35,139 nucleotides of DNA from positions 1-35,139 of the forward strand of contig JAJTBP010000005.1 of the NCBI GenBank assembly GCA_021286825.1, given 5' to 3'. Source of the stretch: Marinilabiliales bacterium. Its GTDB lineage: Bacteria > Bacteroidota > Bacteroidia > Bacteroidales > Prolixibacteraceae. Position numbers and translations under genes: made by a program. The notes under the pieces were generated by a model. That model did no database searches, was not told the origin of the DNA, and worked only from the letters and a program-made list of their open reading frames with translations. This document shows positions 11,293-23,249 of this stretch, one piece after another (position 1 is the stretch's first letter; every line of letters starts with the position of its first letter).

Positions 11293-12075
11293 TCATACTT
11301 GGGTTTCACCGTTCATCCAGGCTTTGAACTGAGCACTTCTGGAGCGGCTAACAAAAATTTCGGCATGGGGATTCGCCTTTAACTCCACTTTTAGTTTGAA
11401 ATTAAAATGGTTGTGAACTTTTCGGATGGCATCGACCGATAGGATGTACTGCCTGTTGACCCGAAAAAACCGCTTTGGATCGAGTCGGTCAGCAAGTTCT
11501 TCGATGGAATTGGGAATCAGATGCCTTTTGTTGTCGTGCGTCATCAAAAAGACCGCTTTCTCTTCTGCAAAAATGCAGGCAACCTCATCGATACGCAAGG
11601 ACACCATGGCATCACCCCTGTTGATGAGAAAACGATCCTTGAAGGCCGGTTGCCACCGACTGCGAAAACTCGAGATCAGTTCTGCCATGCGTGAATCGGT
11701 CTCTTTGGGGACAAAATAGTCCCTTACAACCTGGAATTTGTCGAGCGCCGCGGTTAGCTTCTCCTGCTTTACCGGTTTCAACAGGTAGTCGATGCTGTTG
11801 TGTTCGAAGGCACGAAGCGCAAATTCATCATAAGCCGTGGTAAAGATGACTGGTGTTACGATCCGGACCTCTTCGAAGATGGAGAAGCTTTTCCCGTCCG
11901 CAAGTTGAATGTCCATAAAAATCAGGTCATAGCTCTGGTTCTGGCTCAAATGTTCCACGGCACTCCGAACGGTATCCAAGGGTCCTGTCAGCGTCGCATC
12001 GCGAAGAACAGAAAGAATCATCTGGGATAATCTCCTGGCAGCCAACACTTCGTCTTCAATGATCAGTATTTTCAT
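11293..12075 (-). CDS. LytTR-family response regulator
   Basis: Two-component response regulator of 260 residues: an N-terminal receiver domain (acidic pocket IEDE at 6-9, phospho-acceptor D55 in LIFMDIQLADG, and a KPV motif near residue 100) and a C-terminal LytTR DNA-binding domain (about 150-255). The LytTR domain includes FAEEKAVFLMT, ADRLDPKRFFRVNRQYI and the C-terminal EIFVSRSRSAQFKAWM. LytTR proteins bind paired direct repeats near promoters. It lies 53 bp after the histidine kinase and is co-oriented with the receptor and oxidoreductase genes. The likely cognate sensor is the adjacent LytS-like kinase. The divergent export operon is a plausible target (inference). Confidence 0.95.
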   Translation of the reverse strand: MKILIIEDEVLAARRLSQMILSVLRDATLTGPLDTVRSAVEHLSQNQSYDLIFMDIQLADGKSFSIFEEVRIVTPVIFTTAYDEFALRAFEHNSIDYLLKPVKQEKLTAALDKFQVVRDYFVPKETDSRMAELISSFRSRWQPAFKDRFLINRGDAMVSLRIDEVACIFAEEKAVFLMTHDNKRHLIPNSIEELADRLDPKRFFRVNRQYILSVDAIRKVHNHFNFKLKVELKANPHAEIFVSRSRSAQFKAWMNGETQV

Positions 12076-12128
12076 TTCTTGTGATTTGATCTACAACAAT
12101 TCAATGGTCTTCATCGGCCGATTCACCC

Positions 12129-13211
12129 TTAGCCGGCCATTTCCCCCTCCGGCAGGTGGAAGAGTGGCAGCAACACGGTAAAATGGCCGTTGTCGCGACT
12201 GACCCCAATCTCCTTTCCCGAAAGGAAGAGATAGCGGTTGCGAATGTTCTCCAATCCTATTCCGGTAGAAGGTTCCTTATCCTTTTTGAGACGTATTTCA
12301 TTTTCCACCCTGATGAATTGGTTGTCTAGCACAGCAATTTCGATTCGGAGGGGATAGGCAAGCGAAATCTCATTGTGCTTGATGGCATTTTCCAGCAGCA
12401 TCTGTAGGGTGAGCGGTGGAATGGGCCTTGCATGGTAAATTTCCGGAACATCAAAATGCACCGACAATTTTTCCTCGAAACGCTTTTGCTGAATGTAGAC
12501 ATATTCCCGGGCAATGGATAGTTCCTCCTCCAAGGTCACCGTCTCTTTGTCGCGCGACAGCAACATGTAGCGCATGATGCCGGCAATGCTTTCCACATAC
12601 CTTGAAGCATCGGGATTGTCGTTGACCATCATGGCCAGGGTATTGAGGCTATTGAAAAGGAAATGGGGATTGATCTGGTTGCGTAGGGTATCGTAGCGAG
12701 CATCCAGATTGGCTTTTTGCAACGCCTGTGCACGGAGGAGATCTTCCTTCCAATTGATGAAAAATGAGACCGACGCGTAGATGGAACTGATCATAAAGGT
12801 GATCAGCAAGGATGCACCTACCAGTCCGAGTTGTATCCCCCTATCGAGATGAAGATGGAGCAACTGACTGACGGCAAGGATCTCACCGGCTTCGACTACC
12901 AGCACCAACAGGACCAGGGTAAAAACCTGGAAGAGGATCAGCCGGGTCATTTGGGTAAACATCGAAAACCTTTTGACGGAATATTGAATCAGCATCATGC
13001 TCCCGTTCCAAATCAGGGTGGTTCGTACCAAAGAGATCAGAAATGCGGTCAAAAATCCATTTTCCCCAATCGGATAATCCAGTTGAAACCAGGTCGAGAG
13101 CAGCGAAATGATCAGAATGGAGCCGTACCGGATGAGGTATTCCCGCCTGCGTGTGGTCTCCGGAACGACCAGCACCTTGCAGATATCGGTCTCTTGATTT
13201 GGGTTATTCAT
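12129..13211 (-). CDS. LytS/YehU-type sensor histidine kinase
   Basis: Membrane sensor kinase of 360 residues. Four hydrophobic segments occupy about residues 30-150 with almost no extracellular loop, so the signal is probably sensed in or near the membrane. The His_kinase (LytS-type) domain follows: YDTLRNQINPHFLFNSLN with the phospho-acceptor H183, then the ATP-binding region with LLENAIKHNE (N box) and GIGLENIRNRY (G box). A short cytosolic N-terminus precedes the first segment. The gene starts 17 bp after the receptor stop and precedes the LytTR regulator, so all three are likely co-transcribed. Confidence 0.95.
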   Translation of the reverse strand: MNNPNQETDICKVLVVPETTRRREYLIRYGSILIISLLSTWFQLDYPIGENGFLTAFLISLVRTTLIWNGSMMLIQYSVKRFSMFTQMTRLILFQVFTLVLLVLVVEAGEILAVSQLLHLHLDRGIQLGLVGASLLITFMISSIYASVSFFINWKEDLLRAQALQKANLDARYDTLRNQINPHFLFNSLNTLAMMVNDNPDASRYVESIAGIMRYMLLSRDKETVTLEEELSIAREYVYIQQKRFEEKLSVHFDVPEIYHARPIPPLTLQMLLENAIKHNEISLAYPLRIEIAVLDNQFIRVENEIRLKKDKEPSTGIGLENIRNRYLFLSGKEIGVSRDNGHFTVLLPLFHLPEGEMAG

Positions 13212-13228
13212 TTTCTTTTGTCTGTAGC

Positions 13229-15589
13229 CTAAAATCTTAACCGGTATTGCATCATCGGAAAAAATCCAAGCTGGTTAACGTTCACTGCCTTGTTTTGTGA
13301 TTTACTGTACCACTGCATCAGAAAATTATCATGGTTGGTCAGATTTTCTATGTAAAAGACCCATTCCTGCGAGACATGCCTGGAATCAACCCGGTAGCCA
13401 AATTTGATATCCGTCTTGAAAAAGGATGGAAACTGCAAACTATAGGCCCGGGTATCATCATATTTTGTGGTATTGGCCGCCTGCGATGCCGCCAAATCAA
13501 TCGGCGTGTACCGTTTGCCGCCCGCGTAGCTCATTTTGAAATCCACATTGAAAGCAGCATTCCGTTTCATCGGAAACTCTTTCCCGATTAGGAAATTGAA
13601 GACGTAGTTGCCGTTAAAGGCGCTGTTTCTTTCCGTCCCATCACTTCCTTTGTATTTGGAGTCAAAGAGAGACAGTGTGGTAAGATAATAAATGTTTTTC
13701 GCGAAAAATCTCTCGAGAGTGAATTCCACTCCATAATTCCGGCCGGTTCCTTTGTTGACCAGACTGTCTTCCGTGTTAAGTCCCCAATTGGCACCGGTAT
13801 TGAGGATGCTGAAGGAGGTTGGACGTTGCTCAACCGGCACGTTGAACAGGGACTGGTAATAGGCCTCGGCCTTGAATCTGGTCTGGGGTGACAACGATCG
13901 GTCCCAGCCCACCACAAATTGATTGGATTTTGTAAAACCCAGCTCCCTGTTGGTCTCAATGAGCTGACCCTTGGCATCCCTGCTGCCCAGGAAATAGGTC
14001 GACAAGGTCTGGCTGCGGGAATGGAGTCCATAACCCAAAGTAAGCTTCTGTTTGTCCGAAGTCTGCCAGGCCAGGCTGATTCGGGGTTCCAGTGCCGCTG
14101 ATTGGTTAAGGTCCAGATAGCTGAAATGTATCCCGGGAAGCAGGGAAAGCTGGTTGTTGAATTTGTAAACCATTTGAAAATAGGGTTGAAAGAGGGTAAT
14201 CCCTTGTCCAATGCCTTTGTGGTCGTCCAGGACGGCCCGCATACTTTGGGTCGACTGGCTAAATTGTTTGGTCAGAAGGTCGAAGCCCATCCGGTCGACA
14301 GAAAAGCCGGATTTGATCGTCAATCGACTGCTCAGTTTTGAATTGAGATAGCCACTGAAGGTCGCCCGGTAATCGGCATAGTTGTGATCGATGTTGGAAT
14401 GGGGCTGACTGTTCACATCCAGCGTATCAATGGTGGTACCGCCTGATTGGTACAAACCCGAGAGAATCAGCTTCAACCTTGTTCGTTCGCTGAGATAAGC
14501 CGTATATGAAAGGGCTGAAACGGCCATTCCCGAACGGTTGACCAGATCTTGACCTTCGTCGGAGTACATGTTCTGTTTGTTTCCTCTTTTGCTGTCAAGC
14601 ATGGAGATGGAACTGAACCCACCCAATCCAAAAAGAGTGATTCTTCCCTTTTTCAGCGGAAAGTTCATTTTAAAAGAGAAATCCTTGTATTTCGGAATTC
14701 CGGTGGTTCCCAGGTTGACGATACCATCCATCAGTTCGAGAGTTGAATAACGGAAATTGGCCAGGTAGGAGGATTTATGCTCCTTCGAGAAGGGACCTTC
14801 GGTGCCGGCTTCGAAGCCGTTGAAACCGACCTGGAAAAGGTGTTCATGCTTCTGATTGTTGCCATTGCGCAAATTCAGATCGAATACTCCGCTGAGGGCA
14901 TTCCCATACTGCGCCGGAAAAGCCCCGGTCAGGAAATCACTGTTTTCAAGCAGGTTGTTGTTGAGCATACCAACGGGACCTCCTGTGGTACCATTCTCGG
15001 CAAAGTGATTCGGATTGGGTATTTCCACATCTTCAAGTCGCCACAAAAGGCCTGACGGGGAATTTCCACGGATGACGATGTCGTTGCGCTGATCGTTGGA
15101 AGAGGATACGCCGGCATAGTTCATGGCCATTCGGGCAACATCCCCTCGGCTTCCGGCATATTTCTCCGTCTCTTCGACCGTGAAGGAACGGGCACTGATG
15201 ACAGCCATCCGGTTTCTCGGATCTTCTTTGTGAAGGGATGCCTTGACTTCTATTTCACTGCCTGTTACAACCGATTCTTCGAGCTCCGCCTCCACAATCA
15301 TCTCCTTGACCGAGTTGAGCAACAAGTTCTGGAAGGTGACCGGCTTGTAACCCACAAAAGAAATCCGGATGCTTTGTCTGCCAATGGGCACTTTCTCCAG
15401 GCGAAAACTGCCGTCAGCCTGGGAAAGGGTACCCCGCTGCGGAGTAAATCCAAGCAAAACAACCGAAGCACCGGCCAGGGGTTCCTTACTCTCCTTGTCC
15501 ACCACAACGCCACGGATGGTCTGGGTGGGTTGCGCCGAAGCAAAGAATCCCAAAACGGTCAGCAACCCTGCAACAACATACTTTCTCAT
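13229..15589 (-). CDS. TonB-dependent receptor with N-terminal carboxypeptidase-regulatory-like domain
   Basis: Outer-membrane receptor or transporter of 786 residues. It has a signal peptide ending FFASAQ and a CarboxypepD_reg-like beta domain (about 25-105, with IRGVVVDKESKEPLAGASVV). A plug domain follows, with DVARMAMNYAGVSSSNDQRN, IVIRGNSPSGLLWRLEDVEI and QYGNALSGVFDLNLRNG. The rest is a beta-barrel rich in aromatic beta-strands, ending YRLRF with the C-terminal phenylalanine typical of outer-membrane barrels. The frame extends upstream to 15781 but the signal peptide fixes the start at 15589 (15610 is possible). There is no SusD-like partner, so this is not a standard polysaccharide locus. 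It is co-oriented with a LytS/LytT pair. The substrate is unknown. Confidence 0.92.
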   Translation of the reverse strand: MRKYVVAGLLTVLGFFASAQPTQTIRGVVVDKESKEPLAGASVVLLGFTPQRGTLSQADGSFRLEKVPIGRQSIRISFVGYKPVTFQNLLLNSVKEMIVEAELEESVVTGSEIEVKASLHKEDPRNRMAVISARSFTVEETEKYAGSRGDVARMAMNYAGVSSSNDQRNDIVIRGNSPSGLLWRLEDVEIPNPNHFAENGTTGGPVGMLNNNLLENSDFLTGAFPAQYGNALSGVFDLNLRNGNNQKHEHLFQVGFNGFEAGTEGPFSKEHKSSYLANFRYSTLELMDGIVNLGTTGIPKYKDFSFKMNFPLKKGRITLFGLGGFSSISMLDSKRGNKQNMYSDEGQDLVNRSGMAVSALSYTAYLSERTRLKLILSGLYQSGGTTIDTLDVNSQPHSNIDHNYADYRATFSGYLNSKLSSRLTIKSGFSVDRMGFDLLTKQFSQSTQSMRAVLDDHKGIGQGITLFQPYFQMVYKFNNQLSLLPGIHFSYLDLNQSAALEPRISLAWQTSDKQKLTLGYGLHSRSQTLSTYFLGSRDAKGQLIETNRELGFTKSNQFVVGWDRSLSPQTRFKAEAYYQSLFNVPVEQRPTSFSILNTGANWGLNTEDSLVNKGTGRNYGVEFTLERFFAKNIYYLTTLSLFDSKYKGSDGTERNSAFNGNYVFNFLIGKEFPMKRNAAFNVDFKMSYAGGKRYTPIDLAASQAANTTKYDDTRAYSLQFPSFFKTDIKFGYRVDSRHVSQEWVFYIENLTNHDNFLMQWYSKSQNKAVNVNQLGFFPMMQYRLRF

Positions 15590-15798
15590 ATTCGCGATGT
15601 TAATTTTCATCACAAAAATTGAAGTTTTGTAAAATAGTTGGGTCAAAAATCGGACGACCGGCAGAAAGCAGGGGATGAAATGGCAAAAAAGCGATCCGAA
15701 TAAAACGGAGAGGGTCAGGGCACCCACCCCTCCAGAAAAAATAAACAGAATAGTCAACAAACCCTTATATTTTGAACCCATCTGCTCTTTCCTGCCCG

Positions 15799-15981: not shown

Positions 15982-17313
15982 ATGAACAAGAGACGCATCT
16001 ACCTGCTTGCAGGAGCAACCGGATTGATTCTGATTGTTTTGATCCTATTGATGACCAGAAAATCTGGCGAAGATGAGATTACCTGCCAGGTAAAAAAAGG
16101 AACCATTGAAGTAAAGGTTCACACCACCGGCCAGCTAGAGTCGGAAAACTCTGAAAACATTGTGTTGCCAGCCGTTCTTTCTTCCCAGAATGTCCGGATT
16201 TATGAAATCAAGATCACCGATTTGATCGAAGAGGGATCGGTGGTGGATTCGGGTCAGTACATTGCCACCCTGGACCACAAGGTGATCGAAGAGGTGCTGA
16301 CGACAGCCCGTCTGGAACTGGAAACGGCGCTTTCAACCATTGAAGATGCGAAACTGGATTCCAACCTGAGTCTTTCCAATTACAGGGATCAGATCGCCAA
16401 TTCGCAGTCGGACGTCGAAGAACGCAAGATCGTTCTTGCCGAATCGGCCTACGAATCACCTTCGGTCATCCGCAGGGCCGAAATGGATGTAACCAAGGCC
16501 CAAAGAAAATTGGAACAGGACATCAAGGGCCTGGCCATGCGTCAAAGGCAACTTGATTCCCAGATGGAAAGAAGAAACATCGATCTGCGACAAAAGCAGA
16601 AACGGGTGGACGAATTGATGCAACTTTACGATGCACTGATCATCAAGGCTCCCAAACCTGGAATGGTCATCTATGCCCGCGACAGATTTGGTATCAAGAT
16701 CCAGATCGGATCGGTCCTGACTCCTTGGAGCCCAATCATTGCCACCCTGCCGGATATGACGAAAATGATCTCGCAGACCTATGTCAACGAGATAGACATT
16801 GCAAAAATCAAGGTCGGACAGAAGGTCAACATCAGCATTGATGCTTTTCCTGCCAAGGAATTGAAGGGAGAGGTCATCTCCGTGGCCAACATTGGACAGC
16901 CGATGCCGAAAAGCGACTCCAAAGTCTTCCTGGTAGAGATCAGGGTCATGGGCAGCGATCCCGACCTGAAACCGGCCATGACGACCGGAAACCTCATCAG
17001 CACCGGAGCCTTCACAGACAAACTCTTTGTCCCCACCGAAGCAGTTTATGAGACCGACTCAACCAAATTCGTTTACCTCCGCAAGAATGGGGTCGTCCGT
17101 CAGATTGTTGACACCGGCGAGGAAAACGAAGATTACATCGTCATCAACAAGGGATTGAAGGAGGGTGACCAATTGGTTTTAAATGAGCCTGAAAAACTGG
17201 ACAACATTGAAACCGTGGGATGGGAAATCTACAAGGAACAACAGACCCGAAAGAAGGAGTCTGTAGCTTCCGGCTCCCCTTCCCGTCAGGAGGGCAACCA
17301 TTCCATGCGGTAA
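15982..17313 (+). CDS. efflux periplasmic adaptor (HlyD/MacA-type membrane fusion protein) 1
   Basis: Periplasmic adaptor that bridges an inner-membrane transporter and a TolC channel, 443 residues. One N-terminal membrane anchor (about 6-24) is followed by the first barrel and lipoyl half-motif (GTIEVKVHTTGQLES), a coiled coil at about 95-210 rich in Glu/Arg/Gln, then the returning half (LIIKAPKPGMVIYAR) and beta-barrel (IDIAKIKVGQKVNISIDAF). The C-terminal domain ends in a charged tail. It shares the YESP and IATLPD motifs with the second adaptor of the operon, so they are paralogues. It is the first gene, 108 bp before the permease. Confidence 0.93.
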   Translation: MNKRRIYLLAGATGLILIVLILLMTRKSGEDEITCQVKKGTIEVKVHTTGQLESENSENIVLPAVLSSQNVRIYEIKITDLIEEGSVVDSGQYIATLDHKVIEEVLTTARLELETALSTIEDAKLDSNLSLSNYRDQIANSQSDVEERKIVLAESAYESPSVIRRAEMDVTKAQRKLEQDIKGLAMRQRQLDSQMERRNIDLRQKQKRVDELMQLYDALIIKAPKPGMVIYARDRFGIKIQIGSVLTPWSPIIATLPDMTKMISQTYVNEIDIAKIKVGQKVNISIDAFPAKELKGEVISVANIGQPMPKSDSKVFLVEIRVMGSDPDLKPAMTTGNLISTGAFTDKLFVPTEAVYETDSTKFVYLRKNGVVRQIVDTGEENEDYIVINKGLKEGDQLVLNEPEKLDNIETVGWEIYKEQQTRKKESVASGSPSRQEGNHSMR

Positions 17314-17421
17314 TGAAATGCTCTTCTTTTCACATCGAGATAAAAAATTGAAATACAACAACATCCAGGTCACAGTTACTGGCATCCCGACCCGGAACAT
17401 GTTCCAAACGGATCAAAAGCC

Positions 17422-18783
17422 ATGAAGATCAAAGCATTTTATACCAGGTACTCCTACAATGTGCAGATCGCGCTGGAAGCCATCGTGGCCAACCGGGTCA
17501 AATCCCTGCTCACAGCCCTTGGAATCATCTTTGGTGTTGCAGCCGTGATCAGTATGCTGGCCATCGGCAATGGTGCCGAGCAAGAGATTCTCGAACAGAT
17601 CAAGATGGTGGGGGTCAACAACATCATTGTGACACCTGTGCTCAAGACCGATCAGGCCAACAGCGGCGATGCCAAAGGAGGCTCGCAGGAAACCAACCAA
17701 ATGACGGGAGCCAAGCAAAAGTTCTCCAAAGGACTGACGTTGCTTGATGCCACCTCCATGCAGGAGATCATCCCAACCGTTCAGGCCGTTTGCCCCATCA
17801 TCACCTTCAACTACATGGCCTTCCTTCATGATGTCACCGGTGCAGTCAAACTCGATGGAACAGACAACACCTATTTCAGTCTCTTCGATATCCGACTGGA
17901 GAGCGGGACCCTTTTCCATCCCAGCCATCTGGACGAAGGATATCCGGTCTGCATCATCGGATACAACGTAAAAAATGTCTTTTTTAACCAGGAGCCGGCG
18001 GTCGGCAAATACATCAAGTGCGGCCAGATCTGGCTCAAAGTCATTGGTGTCATCGAGAAAAGAAACTTCGTCGGAACCGGTGCCGGCACTGCCTCCATCA
18101 GCGGAACTGACAACAGCATCATCATACCGGTCAAGACAATGCTGCTTCGGTACAGAAATCGTGCACTGATCCGGGGTGATGAGGTGAAATTGGTAGCCGC
18201 CGCCCGAGACAACTCCTCCAACAAAACCGAAGACATCAATCAGTTGGACAAGATCATCGTTCGGGTGAAGGATACCAAAGACCTTACCTCCACGGCCAAG
18301 GTTGTGGGCAAGATGCTGACGCGCAAGCACAATGGCATCAAGGACTTTGAAGTCAGCATCCCTGAACTGTTGCTCAAACAGCAGCAGAAAACGAAAAACA
18401 TCTTCAACATCGTCTTGGGAGCCATTGCCGGCATCTCACTGATTGTAGGAGGGATAGGCATCATGAACATCATGTTGGCCTCAGTCATGGAGCGAATCCG
18501 GGAAATCGGTACCCGACAGGCCATTGGGGCCTCGCGGAAGGACATCATCTTCCAGTTTCTCTCCGAATCTACCTTGATCAGCCTGGCCGGCGGATTGCTG
18601 GGAATCATCCTGGGAATCATTCTCTCCAAGGTGATTCAGACTGTATTTGGCATCAAGACCATCATCTCGATATTATCCATTTTCATTTCATTCAGTGTTT
18701 CCGTTTTTATCGGAATCACCTTCGGATATCTTCCGGCAAAGAAAGCCGCTGAAAAAGATCCGGTGGAATCCCTTAGACAATAA
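17422..18783 (+). CDS. MacB-type ABC transporter permease (no ATPase domain)
   Basis: Inner-membrane permease of 453 residues with the MacB/FtsX layout. One N-terminal membrane helix (VKSLLTALGIIFGVAAVISML) is followed by a large periplasmic domain at about 45-320. Three C-terminal helices follow, with the family signature GGIGIMNIMLASVMERIREIG, then TRQAIGASRKDI and a final AKKAAEKDPVESLRQ. In MacB the ATPase is fused at the N-terminus, but here there is none and no ATP-binding gene lies in the operon. It probably works with an ATPase encoded elsewhere. TolC starts 6 bp after its stop. Confidence 0.93.
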   Translation: MKIKAFYTRYSYNVQIALEAIVANRVKSLLTALGIIFGVAAVISMLAIGNGAEQEILEQIKMVGVNNIIVTPVLKTDQANSGDAKGGSQETNQMTGAKQKFSKGLTLLDATSMQEIIPTVQAVCPIITFNYMAFLHDVTGAVKLDGTDNTYFSLFDIRLESGTLFHPSHLDEGYPVCIIGYNVKNVFFNQEPAVGKYIKCGQIWLKVIGVIEKRNFVGTGAGTASISGTDNSIIIPVKTMLLRYRNRALIRGDEVKLVAAARDNSSNKTEDINQLDKIIVRVKDTKDLTSTAKVVGKMLTRKHNGIKDFEVSIPELLLKQQQKTKNIFNIVLGAIAGISLIVGGIGIMNIMLASVMERIREIGTRQAIGASRKDIIFQFLSESTLISLAGGLLGIILGIILSKVIQTVFGIKTIISILSIFISFSVSVFIGITFGYLPAKKAAEKDPVESLRQ

Positions 18784-18789
18784 ATTGCC

Positions 18790-20277
18790 ATGACCCGAAT
18801 CCTGATTTTATTTGCCCTACTGTCGATCGGAACCTGCTCCCTGGCACAGCAAGCCGATGTCATGCTGACACTCAACGAAGCCATAGACATGGCCTCCCGG
18901 CAATCGCTGGATGCCTTCAAACAGCAGAACATGTACCTTGCAAGTTATTGGGAGTACAAATATTACCGTTCGGACATGCTGCCGCAATTCAGCATCGGCG
19001 CCAATCCGCTCTCCTACAACAACTCGATCCGCCAGGATTATGTACCACAGGACCAAAACTGGCAGTACAGTCAGCAGAAAAACATCACCTCCAGCGCCTC
19101 GATGAAGATGACGCAGAATGTGGGCCTGACCGGTGGTAGCTTTTCGGCCAGTTCGGACATCGGCATGGTCAAGAATTTTTTGGGTGACAAGACCACCCTC
19201 TTCTCCTCCAACATGGTGAGCATCGGATACAAACAGCGATTGAACGGCTACAACAGCCTTCGGTGGAAATCAAAGATCGAACCACTCAAATTTGAAACGG
19301 CCAAGAAGAAGTTCATCCAGTCGCGGGAAGACATCGCCATCAAAACCACCGGCAAGTTCTTTACCCTGGTTGATGCTCAGATCGAACTGAACATCGCCCG
19401 CACCAACCTGGCCAATTCGGATACACTTTACCAGATCGGCAAAGGACGTTACCAGGTGGGTACGCTCACCCAGGACGAACTGCTCAACTTCGAACTGAAC
19501 CTGATGAATGCCAAGATTGCCATGACAAGGGCGCAGCAGGGACTCGTCAGGGCCCGATCCGATCTAAACATCTTCCTCGGTCTGGATAAAAATACCCTGA
19601 TCGACTGCGTATTGCCCAAGGCCAACAACAGCGGATTTCAGGTGAATGTCGAGGATGCCATTCAAAAGGCTATGGACAACAACCCGGATATCATGGCGCA
19701 AGAGCGTCAGTTGCTGGAGCAGGAAAGCAACGTTAGGTATGTGCGGGCACAAAACGGACTCAGTGCAGACATCAGTGCCATGGCGGGTCTCAACCAGAAA
19801 TCAACCATTCTCTCGGAAGCCTATCAAAATCCCAACCAGTTTCAGAACATTGCCCTGGCAGGGGTCTCCATTCCGATCCTGGACTGGGGGCGCAGAAAAG
19901 GACAGATCAAGATGGCCAAATCCAACCGGGATGTGGTGGTCAATACGGTCAAACAGGCCAGGATCGATTTCGAACAATCGGTCTTGATGAACGTGATGGA
20001 ATTCAATCTGCAGTCGGAGATGGTCTCCAATTCCGCCAAGGCGGATACCATCGCCCAAATGGGTTTTGATGTCACCATGCGCCGATTCAAGATCGGCAAA
20101 CTCGATGTGACCAAGCTTAACCTTGCCCGAAACGACCTGGAAACGGCCCGTCGTGCCTACATTGCCGCCTTGCGGAAATACTGGTCATCCTACTACCTGA
20201 TCCGGGAGCTGTCGCTTTATGATTTTGAGAAGAAGTCAGCACTCACGGCCGATTTTGACAAAATACTCGAACAATGA
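18790..20277 (+). CDS. TolC-family outer membrane efflux protein
   Basis: Outer-membrane channel of the tripartite exporter, 495 residues with a signal peptide (ILILFALLSIGTCSLAQQ). Two long helical OEP repeats are visible: the first around LTLNEAIDMASRQSLDAFKQ through IARTNLANSDTLYQIGKGRYQVGTL, the second around VEDAIQKAMDNNPDIMAQER through MRRFKIGKLDVTKLNLARNDLE. The repeated pattern of a short G-x-L/V turn after a helical R/K-rich stretch is typical of TolC. It is embedded between the permease and the second adaptor, with a 6-bp spacing on the 5' side. Confidence 0.94.
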   Translation: MTRILILFALLSIGTCSLAQQADVMLTLNEAIDMASRQSLDAFKQQNMYLASYWEYKYYRSDMLPQFSIGANPLSYNNSIRQDYVPQDQNWQYSQQKNITSSASMKMTQNVGLTGGSFSASSDIGMVKNFLGDKTTLFSSNMVSIGYKQRLNGYNSLRWKSKIEPLKFETAKKKFIQSREDIAIKTTGKFFTLVDAQIELNIARTNLANSDTLYQIGKGRYQVGTLTQDELLNFELNLMNAKIAMTRAQQGLVRARSDLNIFLGLDKNTLIDCVLPKANNSGFQVNVEDAIQKAMDNNPDIMAQERQLLEQESNVRYVRAQNGLSADISAMAGLNQKSTILSEAYQNPNQFQNIALAGVSIPILDWGRRKGQIKMAKSNRDVVVNTVKQARIDFEQSVLMNVMEFNLQSEMVSNSAKADTIAQMGFDVTMRRFKIGKLDVTKLNLARNDLETARRAYIAALRKYWSSYYLIRELSLYDFEKKSALTADFDKILEQ

Positions 20278-20356
20278 TCACATCCGACTGTCAAAAAAAC
20301 ATCGTTGCCCATCCTGTAGATCCGACCCATTTGCGAAACAACCTCAGAACCAAGGT

Positions 20357-21586
20357 ATGAGACTGACCAAAAAAAAGATTACCATTTTCTCAGGAGCATT
20401 TGTCCTGCTCATTCTGGTGATTTTCTTCATCGGAAAAGCCATCAAGAACAGCACGCTTTATCGGGTTAAGCGGGAGAATTTTGAAGCCATCATCTCTTGC
20501 AAGGGCGAAATACAGAGCGAAAAAGCGATCCTCATCAACATGCCGGATGTCATTGGCGACCGGCAATTGGAGATCTGGGACATTCAGATCAAGGACCTCA
20601 TCCCGGAAGGATCGATTGTCAAACAGGGAGATTATGTGGCCCTGCTGGACCAGGGACGAATCAAACAACTCAAGGAAAAAAACGAAGAGACCCTTAAAAA
20701 ACTCATTTTCAACTACAACGACGAAAAAATAGACAGTGCGGTAGACCTCGTCCAATTACGCAACGGACTGGAACAGTTCGTCTTTGACCTGGATCAGAAA
20801 AAACTGGACATGGAGCAGTCCATCTACGAATCACCGGCCTATCAACGTAAGGCAAAAATGGCCTACGAGCGGGCACAGCGTCAGCTGGAAGCCCGGATTC
20901 GTGCCTACCGGCTTACGCAAAACAACCTCCGCACCAAGGTCCATCGATTTGAGACACAGATCGACGAATTCACGACAAAAGACACCAAGTACCAGCAGGC
21001 TTTCGACCAGGCACGCATAACGGCCCCCCGCGACGGCATGCTGATTTATGGCAGGACTTACGGACGCGGCGGCAGCCGGAAACTAACCGTCGGTTCCTAT
21101 GTGAGCAGGCAAACGCCCACCATCGCCACCCTCCCCGACCTCTCAATCCTCAATTCCGAAACCTATGTAGAAGAGATCTATGTACCCAGAATTCATGCGG
21201 GCGACAGCGCACGGGTTTTCATCGATGCCTTGAAAAACATGGAAATGGCCGGTATCATCTCCTCCATTTCCAACGTAGGACAGGAAATGGCAGGCTTTGA
21301 GTCGAAGGTCTTCAAGGTCAACATCCGCGTATCCAGTGCAGAGAAAAAGATCAAGCCGGCCATGACCACCAACAATGAAATCATCATCTCCAGGGAACCC
21401 AATGTACTGGTCATACCCAGACAGGCCCTTTTTCGCGAAGATGCACGTAGTTTTGTCTATCAAAAAGATTATTTTGGCTACCATATTCAGGATGTTACCT
21501 GTGGCAGTCAAAACGAGAAGCTGGTCGTGATCACGGCCGGACTGAAAGAGGGCGACAGGATCCTCCTCAACAAACCGGAGGAATAG
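20357..21586 (+). CDS. efflux periplasmic adaptor (HlyD-type) 2
   Basis: Second membrane fusion protein of the export operon, 409 residues. The start MRLTKKKI at 20357 directly precedes the membrane anchor (about 9-27); the longer frame overlaps the TolC coding end and is rejected. It is a paralogue of adaptor 1. They share a lipoyl-half region, a coiled coil of about 100 residues with the YESPAY motif, ITAPRDGMLIYGR, IATLPDLS and a barrel with EIYVPRIHAGDSARVFIDAL. The C-terminal part is slightly shorter than in adaptor 1. Two different adaptors around one permease suggest a heteromeric adaptor ring or a second client pump. Confidence 0.92.
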   Translation: MRLTKKKITIFSGAFVLLILVIFFIGKAIKNSTLYRVKRENFEAIISCKGEIQSEKAILINMPDVIGDRQLEIWDIQIKDLIPEGSIVKQGDYVALLDQGRIKQLKEKNEETLKKLIFNYNDEKIDSAVDLVQLRNGLEQFVFDLDQKKLDMEQSIYESPAYQRKAKMAYERAQRQLEARIRAYRLTQNNLRTKVHRFETQIDEFTTKDTKYQQAFDQARITAPRDGMLIYGRTYGRGGSRKLTVGSYVSRQTPTIATLPDLSILNSETYVEEIYVPRIHAGDSARVFIDALKNMEMAGIISSISNVGQEMAGFESKVFKVNIRVSSAEKKIKPAMTTNNEIIISREPNVLVIPRQALFREDARSFVYQKDYFGYHIQDVTCGSQNEKLVVITAGLKEGDRILLNKPEE

Positions 21587-21623: not shown

Positions 21624-23249
21624 ATGAGATACCTGCCATTCTTTTGCCTGCTACTCCTCTCCCGAACTGTTTTTGCACAGCAAATGGGAGAAAAAATGAT
21701 AACGACGGATCGCATAGCCCATCATGTTGCGGTTTTGGCAGCCGATTCGATGTTGGGGAGAATGCCCGCAACAGCCGCTGAAAACAAGGTAACGGCTTAT
21801 CTTGCCGCCCAGATGAAGGAGATCGGATTGTTGCCGGCAGCCCATGGCCGCTACGATCAAGAGGTTCCCTTGCTGGCCGTGACCTCTACCCTCTCACCCA
21901 CGATGGACTTTCAAACCCCAAGCGGTTTGCTGCGCATCCCCAAGATGACCGATTATGTGACCTTTTCCAGAAAAGTGGTGAATGAGCTATCGCTGGATCG
22001 CTCAGAGCTTGTATTTGCAGGGTTTGGCATCACGGCTCCCGAATATGGAAGAGATGATTTTAAGGGAATGGATCTGAAGGGAAAAACAATCCTGGTATTC
22101 GTCAATGATCCGGGATACGGCACACAGGATTCCTATTTCAAAGGAAATACCATGACCTATTACGGCCGCTGGACCTACAAATTTGAAGAGGCCGCCAGGC
22201 AAGGCGCCAAAGGGTGCCTCATCATTCATGAAACGGGACCTGCAGGTTACCCCTGGAAGGTGGTCAGCAACAATGGCGAGACCACCAAACTCTATCTTAG
22301 ACCGGAAGATGGTTACCGCAACCGATGCGATGTAGAGGGATGGATCTCTCCCGAGGCAGCCGAAAAACTCATGCAATCCTGCAACCTTAGCCTGAAAAAA
22401 GCCAAAGAGATGGCACTTAAGCGGGATTTCAGACCATTTGCCCTTCCTATAAAAGTCTCCTGTCAGATTCACAATCACTTTGCCTACCAGCAGTCACACA
22501 ATGTATGTGGTCTGATCAAAGGTTCGAAGCATCCCGAGGAGGTGGTGGTCTATACTGCCCACTGGGATCACCTGGGTGTGACAAAGCCGGTCCGGGGTGA
22601 CAGCATCTGCAACGGTGCCACCGACAATGCCAGTGCGGTAGCCTGGATGCTTGAGATCTCCCGTGCCTTCAAAAATACATCACCACCCGATAGATCGATC
22701 CTCTTTCTGGCGGTCACCTGTGAAGAATCCGGACTGCTGGGAAGTACCTATTACACCGAACACCCCTTCTTCCCGATGCGCAATACCGTATGTGTCATCA
22801 ACACCGATGTCATGCTCTTTTTGGGCAAATTCAGGGATGTGACGCTGACTGGATCGGGTCAGTCGGAACTAGACGACTGGGTGGCAGCCGAGGCCAAACG
22901 TTGCGGCCGCTACATTGCTCCGGATCCCAATCCGGACAACGGCATGTTCTTCCGCTCCGATCAATTCCCGTTTGCCAAAATGGGGGTACCCGCCATCTTT
23001 GCCAAGGGATATACCGATGCGGAGAAGTTGGGGAAGAGCGAGACGCTGGCCAGAATAGAACGTTACTGGAAAGAGACCTACCATACACCTCAGGACGAAT
23101 ACCATCCGGATCGGGATGATCTAAACGGATTGACCGAAGATGCCCGTTTGATGTTTCGCGTAGGCAGCAATCTGGCCAACTCAGATCAATGGCCGAAATG
23201 GAACAAAGACTCCGAATTTCGTGCGATTCGCCAGAAAGAGGGCCGCTGA
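21624..23249 (+). CDS. secreted M28-family metallopeptidase with PA domain
   Basis: Zinc aminopeptidase or carboxypeptidase-like enzyme exported to the periplasm, 541 residues with a signal peptide ending RTVFAQQ. A PA-like insert (GFGITAPEYGRDDFKG, TILVFVNDPGYG, GAKGCLIIHE) precedes the catalytic domain. The zinc ligands and catalytic acids are visible in order: AHWDHLG (about residue 312), NGATDNASA (Asp, about 332), CEESGLLGS (catalytic Glu, about 366), INTDVM (Asp, about 393) and the late His in YHTPQDEYHPD (about 486). It lies 37 bp after adaptor 2, so it is probably co-transcribed with the exporter; a role on an exported peptide is only an inference. Confidence 0.93.
   Translation: MRYLPFFCLLLLSRTVFAQQMGEKMITTDRIAHHVAVLAADSMLGRMPATAAENKVTAYLAAQMKEIGLLPAAHGRYDQEVPLLAVTSTLSPTMDFQTPSGLLRIPKMTDYVTFSRKVVNELSLDRSELVFAGFGITAPEYGRDDFKGMDLKGKTILVFVNDPGYGTQDSYFKGNTMTYYGRWTYKFEEAARQGAKGCLIIHETGPAGYPWKVVSNNGETTKLYLRPEDGYRNRCDVEGWISPEAAEKLMQSCNLSLKKAKEMALKRDFRPFALPIKVSCQIHNHFAYQQSHNVCGLIKGSKHPEEVVVYTAHWDHLGVTKPVRGDSICNGATDNASAVAWMLEISRAFKNTSPPDRSILFLAVTCEESGLLGSTYYTEHPFFPMRNTVCVINTDVMLFLGKFRDVTLTGSGQSELDDWVAAEAKRCGRYIAPDPNPDNGMFFRSDQFPFAKMGVPAIFAKGYTDAEKLGKSETLARIERYWKETYHTPQDEYHPDRDDLNGLTEDARLMFRVGSNLANSDQWPKWNKDSEFRAIRQKEGR

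What the first reader, a model, noticed from the sequence alone, without database searches (positions are those of the whole stretch)
15982..21586. ABC export operon with two adaptors and a MacB-type permease but no ATPase gene
Between the first adaptor and the end of the operon there is a permease with the MacB layout, a TolC channel and a second adaptor, but no ATP-binding protein. The gaps (108, 6, 79 bp) leave no room for one. The two adaptors are paralogues with different coiled coils. Inference: the permease uses an ATPase encoded elsewhere, perhaps shared, and the two adaptors may form a mixed ring.
Basis: seen in the sequence. Interest (0 to 1): 0.55.

Follow-up and report, generated by a model that had tools for sequence, protein, structure and literature searches.

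The report
Export pump borrowing a distant ATPase
This bacterial export-pump operon carries no motor gene; comparison of related genomes points to one particular motor gene at a fixed place elsewhere in the chromosome, which probably also powers other permeases, a kind of motor sharing described so far mainly for nutrient importers.

Summary
The four-gene operon (adaptor, MacB-type permease, TolC channel, second adaptor) has no ATPase gene or domain in the 35 kb window. The inference of a trans, perhaps shared, ATPase is supported, and the ATPase can be named: a 238-aa MacB-type ATPase at G000:C249:27946-28659. In 34 of 36 such loci it stands beside a cobalamin adenosyltransferase gene (22 of 36 with recG). 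In a sister lineage the same four genes sit directly in front of its orthologue; in three further lineages the operon also adjoins an ATPase of that clade. Otherwise the operon lacks one (22 of 25 fully flanked, window counted). The ATPase also occurs in genomes where this permease was not found, together with two other ATPase-less MacB-type permeases ("PURH", "X"). In four deep-branching genomes it lies in one operon with relatives of both, while the pump operon stands elsewhere without an ATPase. Among 53 near-complete genomes, all 36 with any of the three permeases have the ATPase; of 17 without, none does (305-bit cut; 4 of 17 at 290). Best reading: one ATPase serving several MacB-type permeases. 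Evidence is comparative only, and the mixed adaptor ring is untested.

The parts
15982..17313 (+). MFP1, first periplasmic adaptor (443 aa)
   Evidence: PF13437/PF16576 over cut-off; an adaptor heads every orthologous operon that has at least 1 kb of sequence upstream
17422..18783 (+). PERM, MacB-type permease without ATPase domain (453 aa)
   Evidence: PF12704 + PF02687; AF2 model, best PDB match MacB 5gko, TMq 0.71; coupling region conserved
18790..20277 (+). TolC-family outer membrane channel (495 aa)
   Evidence: PF02321 over cut-off
20357..21586 (+). MFP2, second periplasmic adaptor (409 aa from this ATG; longest frame from 20219)
   Evidence: PF13437 over cut-off; 34% identical to MFP1; present in the same-family (f1) operons read to that end except G017/G036, absent in seven operons of other families

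Best explanation
The operon encodes a MacAB-TolC-like tripartite exporter whose permease (PERM) has no ATPase of its own. It is driven in trans by one stand-alone MacB-type ATPase ('ATP', G000:C249:27946-28659), kept at a conserved recG/OMT-ATP-ATR place in the chromosome. Inferred mechanism: two ATP subunits dock on the coupling helices of a PERM dimer. ATP binding closes the stalk and periplasmic domains and pushes a substrate from the periplasm through the adaptor ring and TolC. The same ATPase most likely also drives two other ATPase-less MacB-type permeases, PURH (beside purH/rsgA) and X, whose relatives are its operon partners in deep-branching genomes. SHOWN: gene content, locations, orthology, co-occurrence. 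INFERRED: physical partnership, sharing, mechanism, export. UNKNOWN: substrate. My split confidence: the trans ATPase is this gene 0.85; it is shared 0.65.
For: (1) In 13 of the 50 loci (L131-L139, L141, L142, L148, L172; L135 is the same locus as G021's L079) an ATPase follows MFP2 by 77-91 bp. In the six whose neighbourhood is printed (L079, L132, L133, L134, L138, L141) the order is recG-OMT-MFP1-PERM-TolC-MFP2-ATP-ATR. (2) The window genome's orthologue of that ATPase is 82% identical to the L132 copy, the next-best own ATPase 55%. Its Walker A, signature, Walker B and H-loop are intact. (3) One supported clade (68 of 83 rows, 99/96) holds stand-alone and operon-linked copies. (4) Further adjacencies: G012 (convergent), G017/G036 (after TolC), Crocinitomicaceae L161 (after TolC, with ATR within 400 bp). 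(5) In genomes at least 90% complete, PERM-only ones keep ATP (5 of 5: G012, G017, G018, G036, G039). Those with PURH or X and no PERM found keep it too (9 of 9). Those with none of the three: 0 of 17 at 305 bits. (6) In G084, G085, G086 and G088 the order is TolC-MFP-ATP-PURH-X (permeases labelled by best match), while their MFP-PERM-TolC operons are on other contigs with no ATPase nearer than 6 kb. (7) The operon genes of the window's genus nest inside the linked lineage (one-clade tree rejected, AU 3e-53), whereas recG and ATP do not follow (AU 3e-91 and 0.0013): the operon seems to have arrived without its ATPase. (8) TM2, TM1 and the coupling region are the most conserved parts of PERM (44 rows).
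Against: No biochemical evidence exists. Presence/absence counts are not corrected for relatedness. The 305-bit cut was set after seeing the data; at 290 bits 4 of 17 near-complete genomes without the three permeases have a match (G010, G022, G023, G028). G010, G023 and G028 carry a related operon with its own ATPase; G022 was not inspected. PERM without ATP occurs in G003 (85% complete), G019 (84%) and G087 (completeness not told; best match 257 bits). PURH and X do not always go together (G024, G042, G045, and the window genome itself, where X was not found). A LolD-like and an FtsE-like ATPase are also present and could in principle serve PERM. In the ATP tree the sister relation of the window's genus and the linked lineage is weak (91/40).
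Confidence: 0.74

Rival explanations
1. ATP is dedicated to this exporter alone; PURH and X use another ATPase such as the LolD-like one.
For: ATP adjoins the PERM operon in four lineages.
Against: ATP persists in all 11 of 61 genomes that have PURH or X and in which no PERM was found, and is in one operon with relatives of PURH and X in four genomes.
Confidence: 0.2
2. ATP serves only PURH/X; PERM uses LolD-like, FtsE-like or another cellular ATPase, or works without ATP. The adjacencies to the PERM operon are coincidence.
For: The ATP operon with PURH and X relatives in deep-branching genomes; LolD-like and FtsE-like ATPases exist in the genome.
Against: PERM-only genomes keep ATP (5 of 5 near-complete). 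Four adjacencies involve exactly this clade. The coupling region is conserved.
Confidence: 0.1
3. Artefact: the ATPase was lost from the assembly or sits just beyond a contig end.
For: The window genome is a 472-contig assembly.
Against: The 15.9 kb upstream and 13.5 kb downstream hold no ATPase. The same arrangement occurs in the complete genome of Marivirga arenosa (L173/G079) and in single-contig G035, with ATP far away.
Confidence: 0.01

Closest known systems
MacAB-TolC (type VII ABC tripartite efflux pump)
   Same: MacB_PCD + FtsX permease, HlyD/MacA-type adaptor, TolC channel; best solved-structure matches are MacB
   Different: The ATPase is neither fused to the permease nor in the operon; there are two adaptors
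Multitask ATPases of sugar importers (MsmX, MsmK)
   Same: An orphan ATPase at a distinct locus and several incomplete transporters lacking one (passages of PMC7658222 seen)
   Different: Those serve type I CUT1 importers and are tested in vivo; here MacB-type exporters, and no test yet
LolCDE and YknXYZ / Spr0693-0695 MacB relatives
   Same: ATPase as a separate polypeptide; four-helix FtsX-type permease (passages of PMC5985334; PDB chains of 5xu1)
   Different: The Spr system is one operon (abstract start of PMC5768738); that LolCDE and YknXYZ genes stand together is recalled
TriABC-OpmH of Pseudomonas
   Same: Two adaptor genes in one operon (passage of PMC8277102)
   Different: RND pump, no ATPase needed

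Membership tests
MacAB-TolC-type tripartite ABC exporter | MacB_PCD and FtsX domains in the permease | tested here: met
   AF2 model, 5gko TMq 0.71 (mean pLDDT 75.2)
MacAB-TolC-type tripartite ABC exporter | adaptor and TolC-family channel in the operon | tested here: met
MacAB-TolC-type tripartite ABC exporter | ATPase fused to, or encoded with, the permease | tested here: not met
MacAB-TolC-type tripartite ABC exporter | curated score of NCBI's MacB model (NF007826, 966 bits, model includes the ATPase) | tested here: not met
   219.6 bits over the permease part
MacAB-TolC-type tripartite ABC exporter | ATP-driven export shown | not testable with these tools
   -
Multitask (shared) ABC ATPase | complete ATPase gene with no permease gene beside it | tested here: met
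Multitask (shared) ABC ATPase | two or more ATPase-less permeases in the same genome | tested here: met
   PERM and PURH in the window genome (the only PF00005 match near PURH is a weak one, 31 bits, inside the rsgA frame). PERM, PURH and X in 22 of 61 genomes, one of them (G056) by a PERM fragment; 21 of the 22 have ATP
Multitask (shared) ABC ATPase | shown to energise more than one transporter | not testable with these tools
   needs genetics or biochemistry
LolCDE | permease of the LolC/LolE family | tested here: not met
   PERM scores 219.6 bits to the MacB model against 32.8 and 28.4 to Lol permease models

The most novel reading that the evidence does not exclude
A multitask ATPase for MacB-type (type VII) exporters: a single ATPase gene energises three different permeases (PERM, PURH, X). 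Pump operons can spread between genomes without any ATPase because the recipient already holds the shared one.
Probability: 0.6. Interest if true: 0.7.

Novelty: new variant of a known kind. Interest (0 to 1): 0.6.

Why it matters
Paired ATPases and permeases are usually assumed to be encoded together. A paper of 2020 says sharing had been reported only for CUT1 sugar importers (passages of PMC7658222); later papers in a search listing suggest shared ATPases FhuC and MceG in other importers (titles and abstract starts only). My searches for shared or orphan ATPases with MacB-type exporters listed no such case that I noticed; I saw listings and some passages, and subscription papers are missing. 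If true, many 'incomplete' MacB-type operons in Bacteroidota can be assigned their motor, and the case gives natural swaps for studying how one ATPase recognises several permeases.

Tried and rejected
Considered and dropped: an ATPase domain inside the permease frame; assembly loss (complete genomes); the LolD-like ATPase as partner (a separate branch; it would not explain the adjacencies). I asked whether MFP2 could be the lost adaptor of the PURH/X operon: the adaptor tree puts MFP2 beside MFP1, not with the TolC-MFP-ATP-PURH-X adaptors (quick tree). No tree-corrected co-occurrence test was made, because I held no marker gene for the genomes without ATP. The ATPase-permease complex was not modelled (single chains only). 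Literature searches led nowhere useful (one search listed no paper). On rechecking I found that G056, counted PERM-less, has a PERM fragment at a contig end with a pump-type TolC beside it; the counts were redone and the odds left as they were.

Full report
WHAT IS THERE. The window is one contig of a Bacteroidota assembly (G000, 94.8% complete, 472 contigs), probably Prolixibacteraceae (inferred: close relatives bear that name or Mariniphaga). Four genes in a row encode an adaptor (MFP1), a MacB-type permease (PERM), a TolC channel and a second adaptor (MFP2), with gaps of 108, 6 and 79 bp. A peptidase M28 gene follows after 37 bp. No ATPase domain or gene was found in the window. The AF2 model of PERM (mean pLDDT 75.2; under 50 in 76-98, 217-226 and 246-271) matches MacB best (5gko, TMq 0.71).

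IS THE ATPASE CONSISTENTLY MISSING? PERM orthologues of at least 420 bits occur in 30 of 61 genomes (window genome plus 60 relatives). Of these 30, 25 operons have at least 1 kb on both sides, and 22 of the 25 have no ATPase within 3 kb. G021, G017 and G036 have one within 100 bp. G012 has one convergent with MFP2. G011, G019, G003 and G004 are cut by contig ends. A 31st genome, G056, has a PERM fragment at a contig end (66% identical over residues 373-452, with a pump-type TolC on the same 3.8 kb contig).

WHICH ATPASE? In the nearest sister lineage (13 of the 50 loci) an ATPase gene follows MFP2 by 77-91 bp. Its orthologue in the window genome is at C249:27946-28659: 82% identical to the L132 copy, while the next-best own ATPase reaches 55%. 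It lies after recG and a gene I label 'OMT' (methyltransferase-like by my guess; no Pfam match) and before a cobalamin adenosyltransferase gene (ATR; PF01923). Of 36 ATP loci fetched (window genome counted), 34 have ATR, 22 recG and 20 OMT; one of the two without ATR ends at a contig end. None holds a permease of the PERM, PURH or X kind. L224 (G018) has a weakly matching TolC and adaptor pair (65 and 64 bits) beyond recG, 2.8 kb away. In the six sister loci printed the pump operon stands between OMT and ATP. The tree puts stand-alone and operon-linked copies in one clade of 68 rows (99/96). The sister lineage's copies stand next to those of the window's genus, but weakly (91/40).

HOW THE OPERON LOST ITS NEIGHBOUR. 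recG puts the window's genus and the linked lineage as two sister clades (100/100 each). The joined operon proteins put the genus inside the linked lineage; a tree with the linked rows as one clade is rejected (AU 3e-53). recG and ATP reject the operon's topology (AU 3e-91 and 0.0013; groups were chosen after seeing the trees). The simplest reading is that the operon moved, probably by transfer between lineages, to a new site without its ATPase, and works with the resident orthologue. In the other same-family genomes with both, except G012, G017, G021 and G036, operon and ATP are also apart.

IS IT SHARED? ATP is kept in 11 of 61 genomes where no PERM was found but PURH or X was. The window genome has a second MacB-type permease without an ATPase gene beside it, PURH, between purH and rsgA (my reading of the products), found in 33 of 61 genomes (in two pieces in G021). 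A third, X, is in 33 of 61 but was not found in the window genome. Of the 53 genomes at least 90% complete, all 36 with PERM, PURH or X have ATP and 0 of 17 without do (305-bit cut, chosen after seeing the data; 4 of 17 at 290 bits). Of all 61, the exceptions are G003 and G019 (85% and 84% complete). In near-complete genomes without PERM, PURH/X predicts ATP (9 of 9 against 0 of 17). In those without PURH/X, PERM does (5 of 5 against 0 of 17). These counts are not corrected for relatedness. In G084, G085, G086 and G088 the order is TolC-MFP-ATP-PURH-X (G088 has a second PURH-X pair), and their MFP-PERM-TolC operons are on other contigs with no ATPase nearer than 6 kb. The permease tree groups these partners with the PURH and X of the Bacteroidia (100/93 and 99/95). 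G087 has PERM but no clear ATP or PURH, which counts against a strict rule, or is incompleteness. At least two named genomes repeat genomes of the relatives' set (G073 = G014, G074 = G029, judged by identical matches), so the sets are not fully separate.

ADAPTORS. MFP1 and MFP2 are 34% identical. Seven operons of other families and G017/G036 have one adaptor, and related operons with three exist (L102-L104). MFP2 groups as sister to MFP1 (quick tree). A mixed ring is possible but untested; an operon with two adaptor genes is known from TriABC (passage of PMC8277102).

LITERATURE. Shared ('multitask') ATPases are described for sugar importers, and said in 2020 to be reported only there (passages of PMC7658222). 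A MacB review states that the ATPase may be fused or separate; the word orphan was not found in its main text (search within PMC5985334). A survey of Bacillus subtilis mentions multitask ATPases under type I importers; of the passages found, none says so for type VII exporters (PMC11466899).

VERDICT. It is a new variant of known kinds: a MacAB-TolC-like pump run by a separately encoded, probably shared ATPase.

Noticed in passing
L110:6779-8092 (G000:C91): PURH, a MacB-type permease without ATPase gene between purH and rsgA, found in 33 of 61 genomes searched.
   Followed up: yes
L115:6657-7805 (G000:C249): A 382-aa gene of unknown kind ('hypX') sits between OMT and the ATPase, where the pump operon sits in the sister lineage; also in L208 and L213. 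The slot may be an insertion site.
   Followed up: no
window 11293-15781, - strand: TonB-dependent receptor, histidine kinase and LytTR regulator genes lie divergent to the pump operon; the same in G007 (L078), not seen in L075-L077.
   Followed up: partly
window 21624-23249: Peptidase M28 gene 37 bp after MFP2; a homologue follows the operon in G001, G002, G006 and G007 (in G002 split in two frames) but was not seen after the operon in the ATPase-linked loci.
   Followed up: partly
L150:1020-7275: Two successive pump-operon copies, MFP-PERM-MFP then MFP-PERM, on one contig.
   Followed up: no
L096 and L107 (both G058): One genome has both an ATPase-less PERM operon and a related three-adaptor operon with its own ATPase.
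   Followed up: partly
L112 (G000:C320): An array of several long (about 780-840 aa) FtsX-type permeases around one ATPase gene.
   Followed up: no
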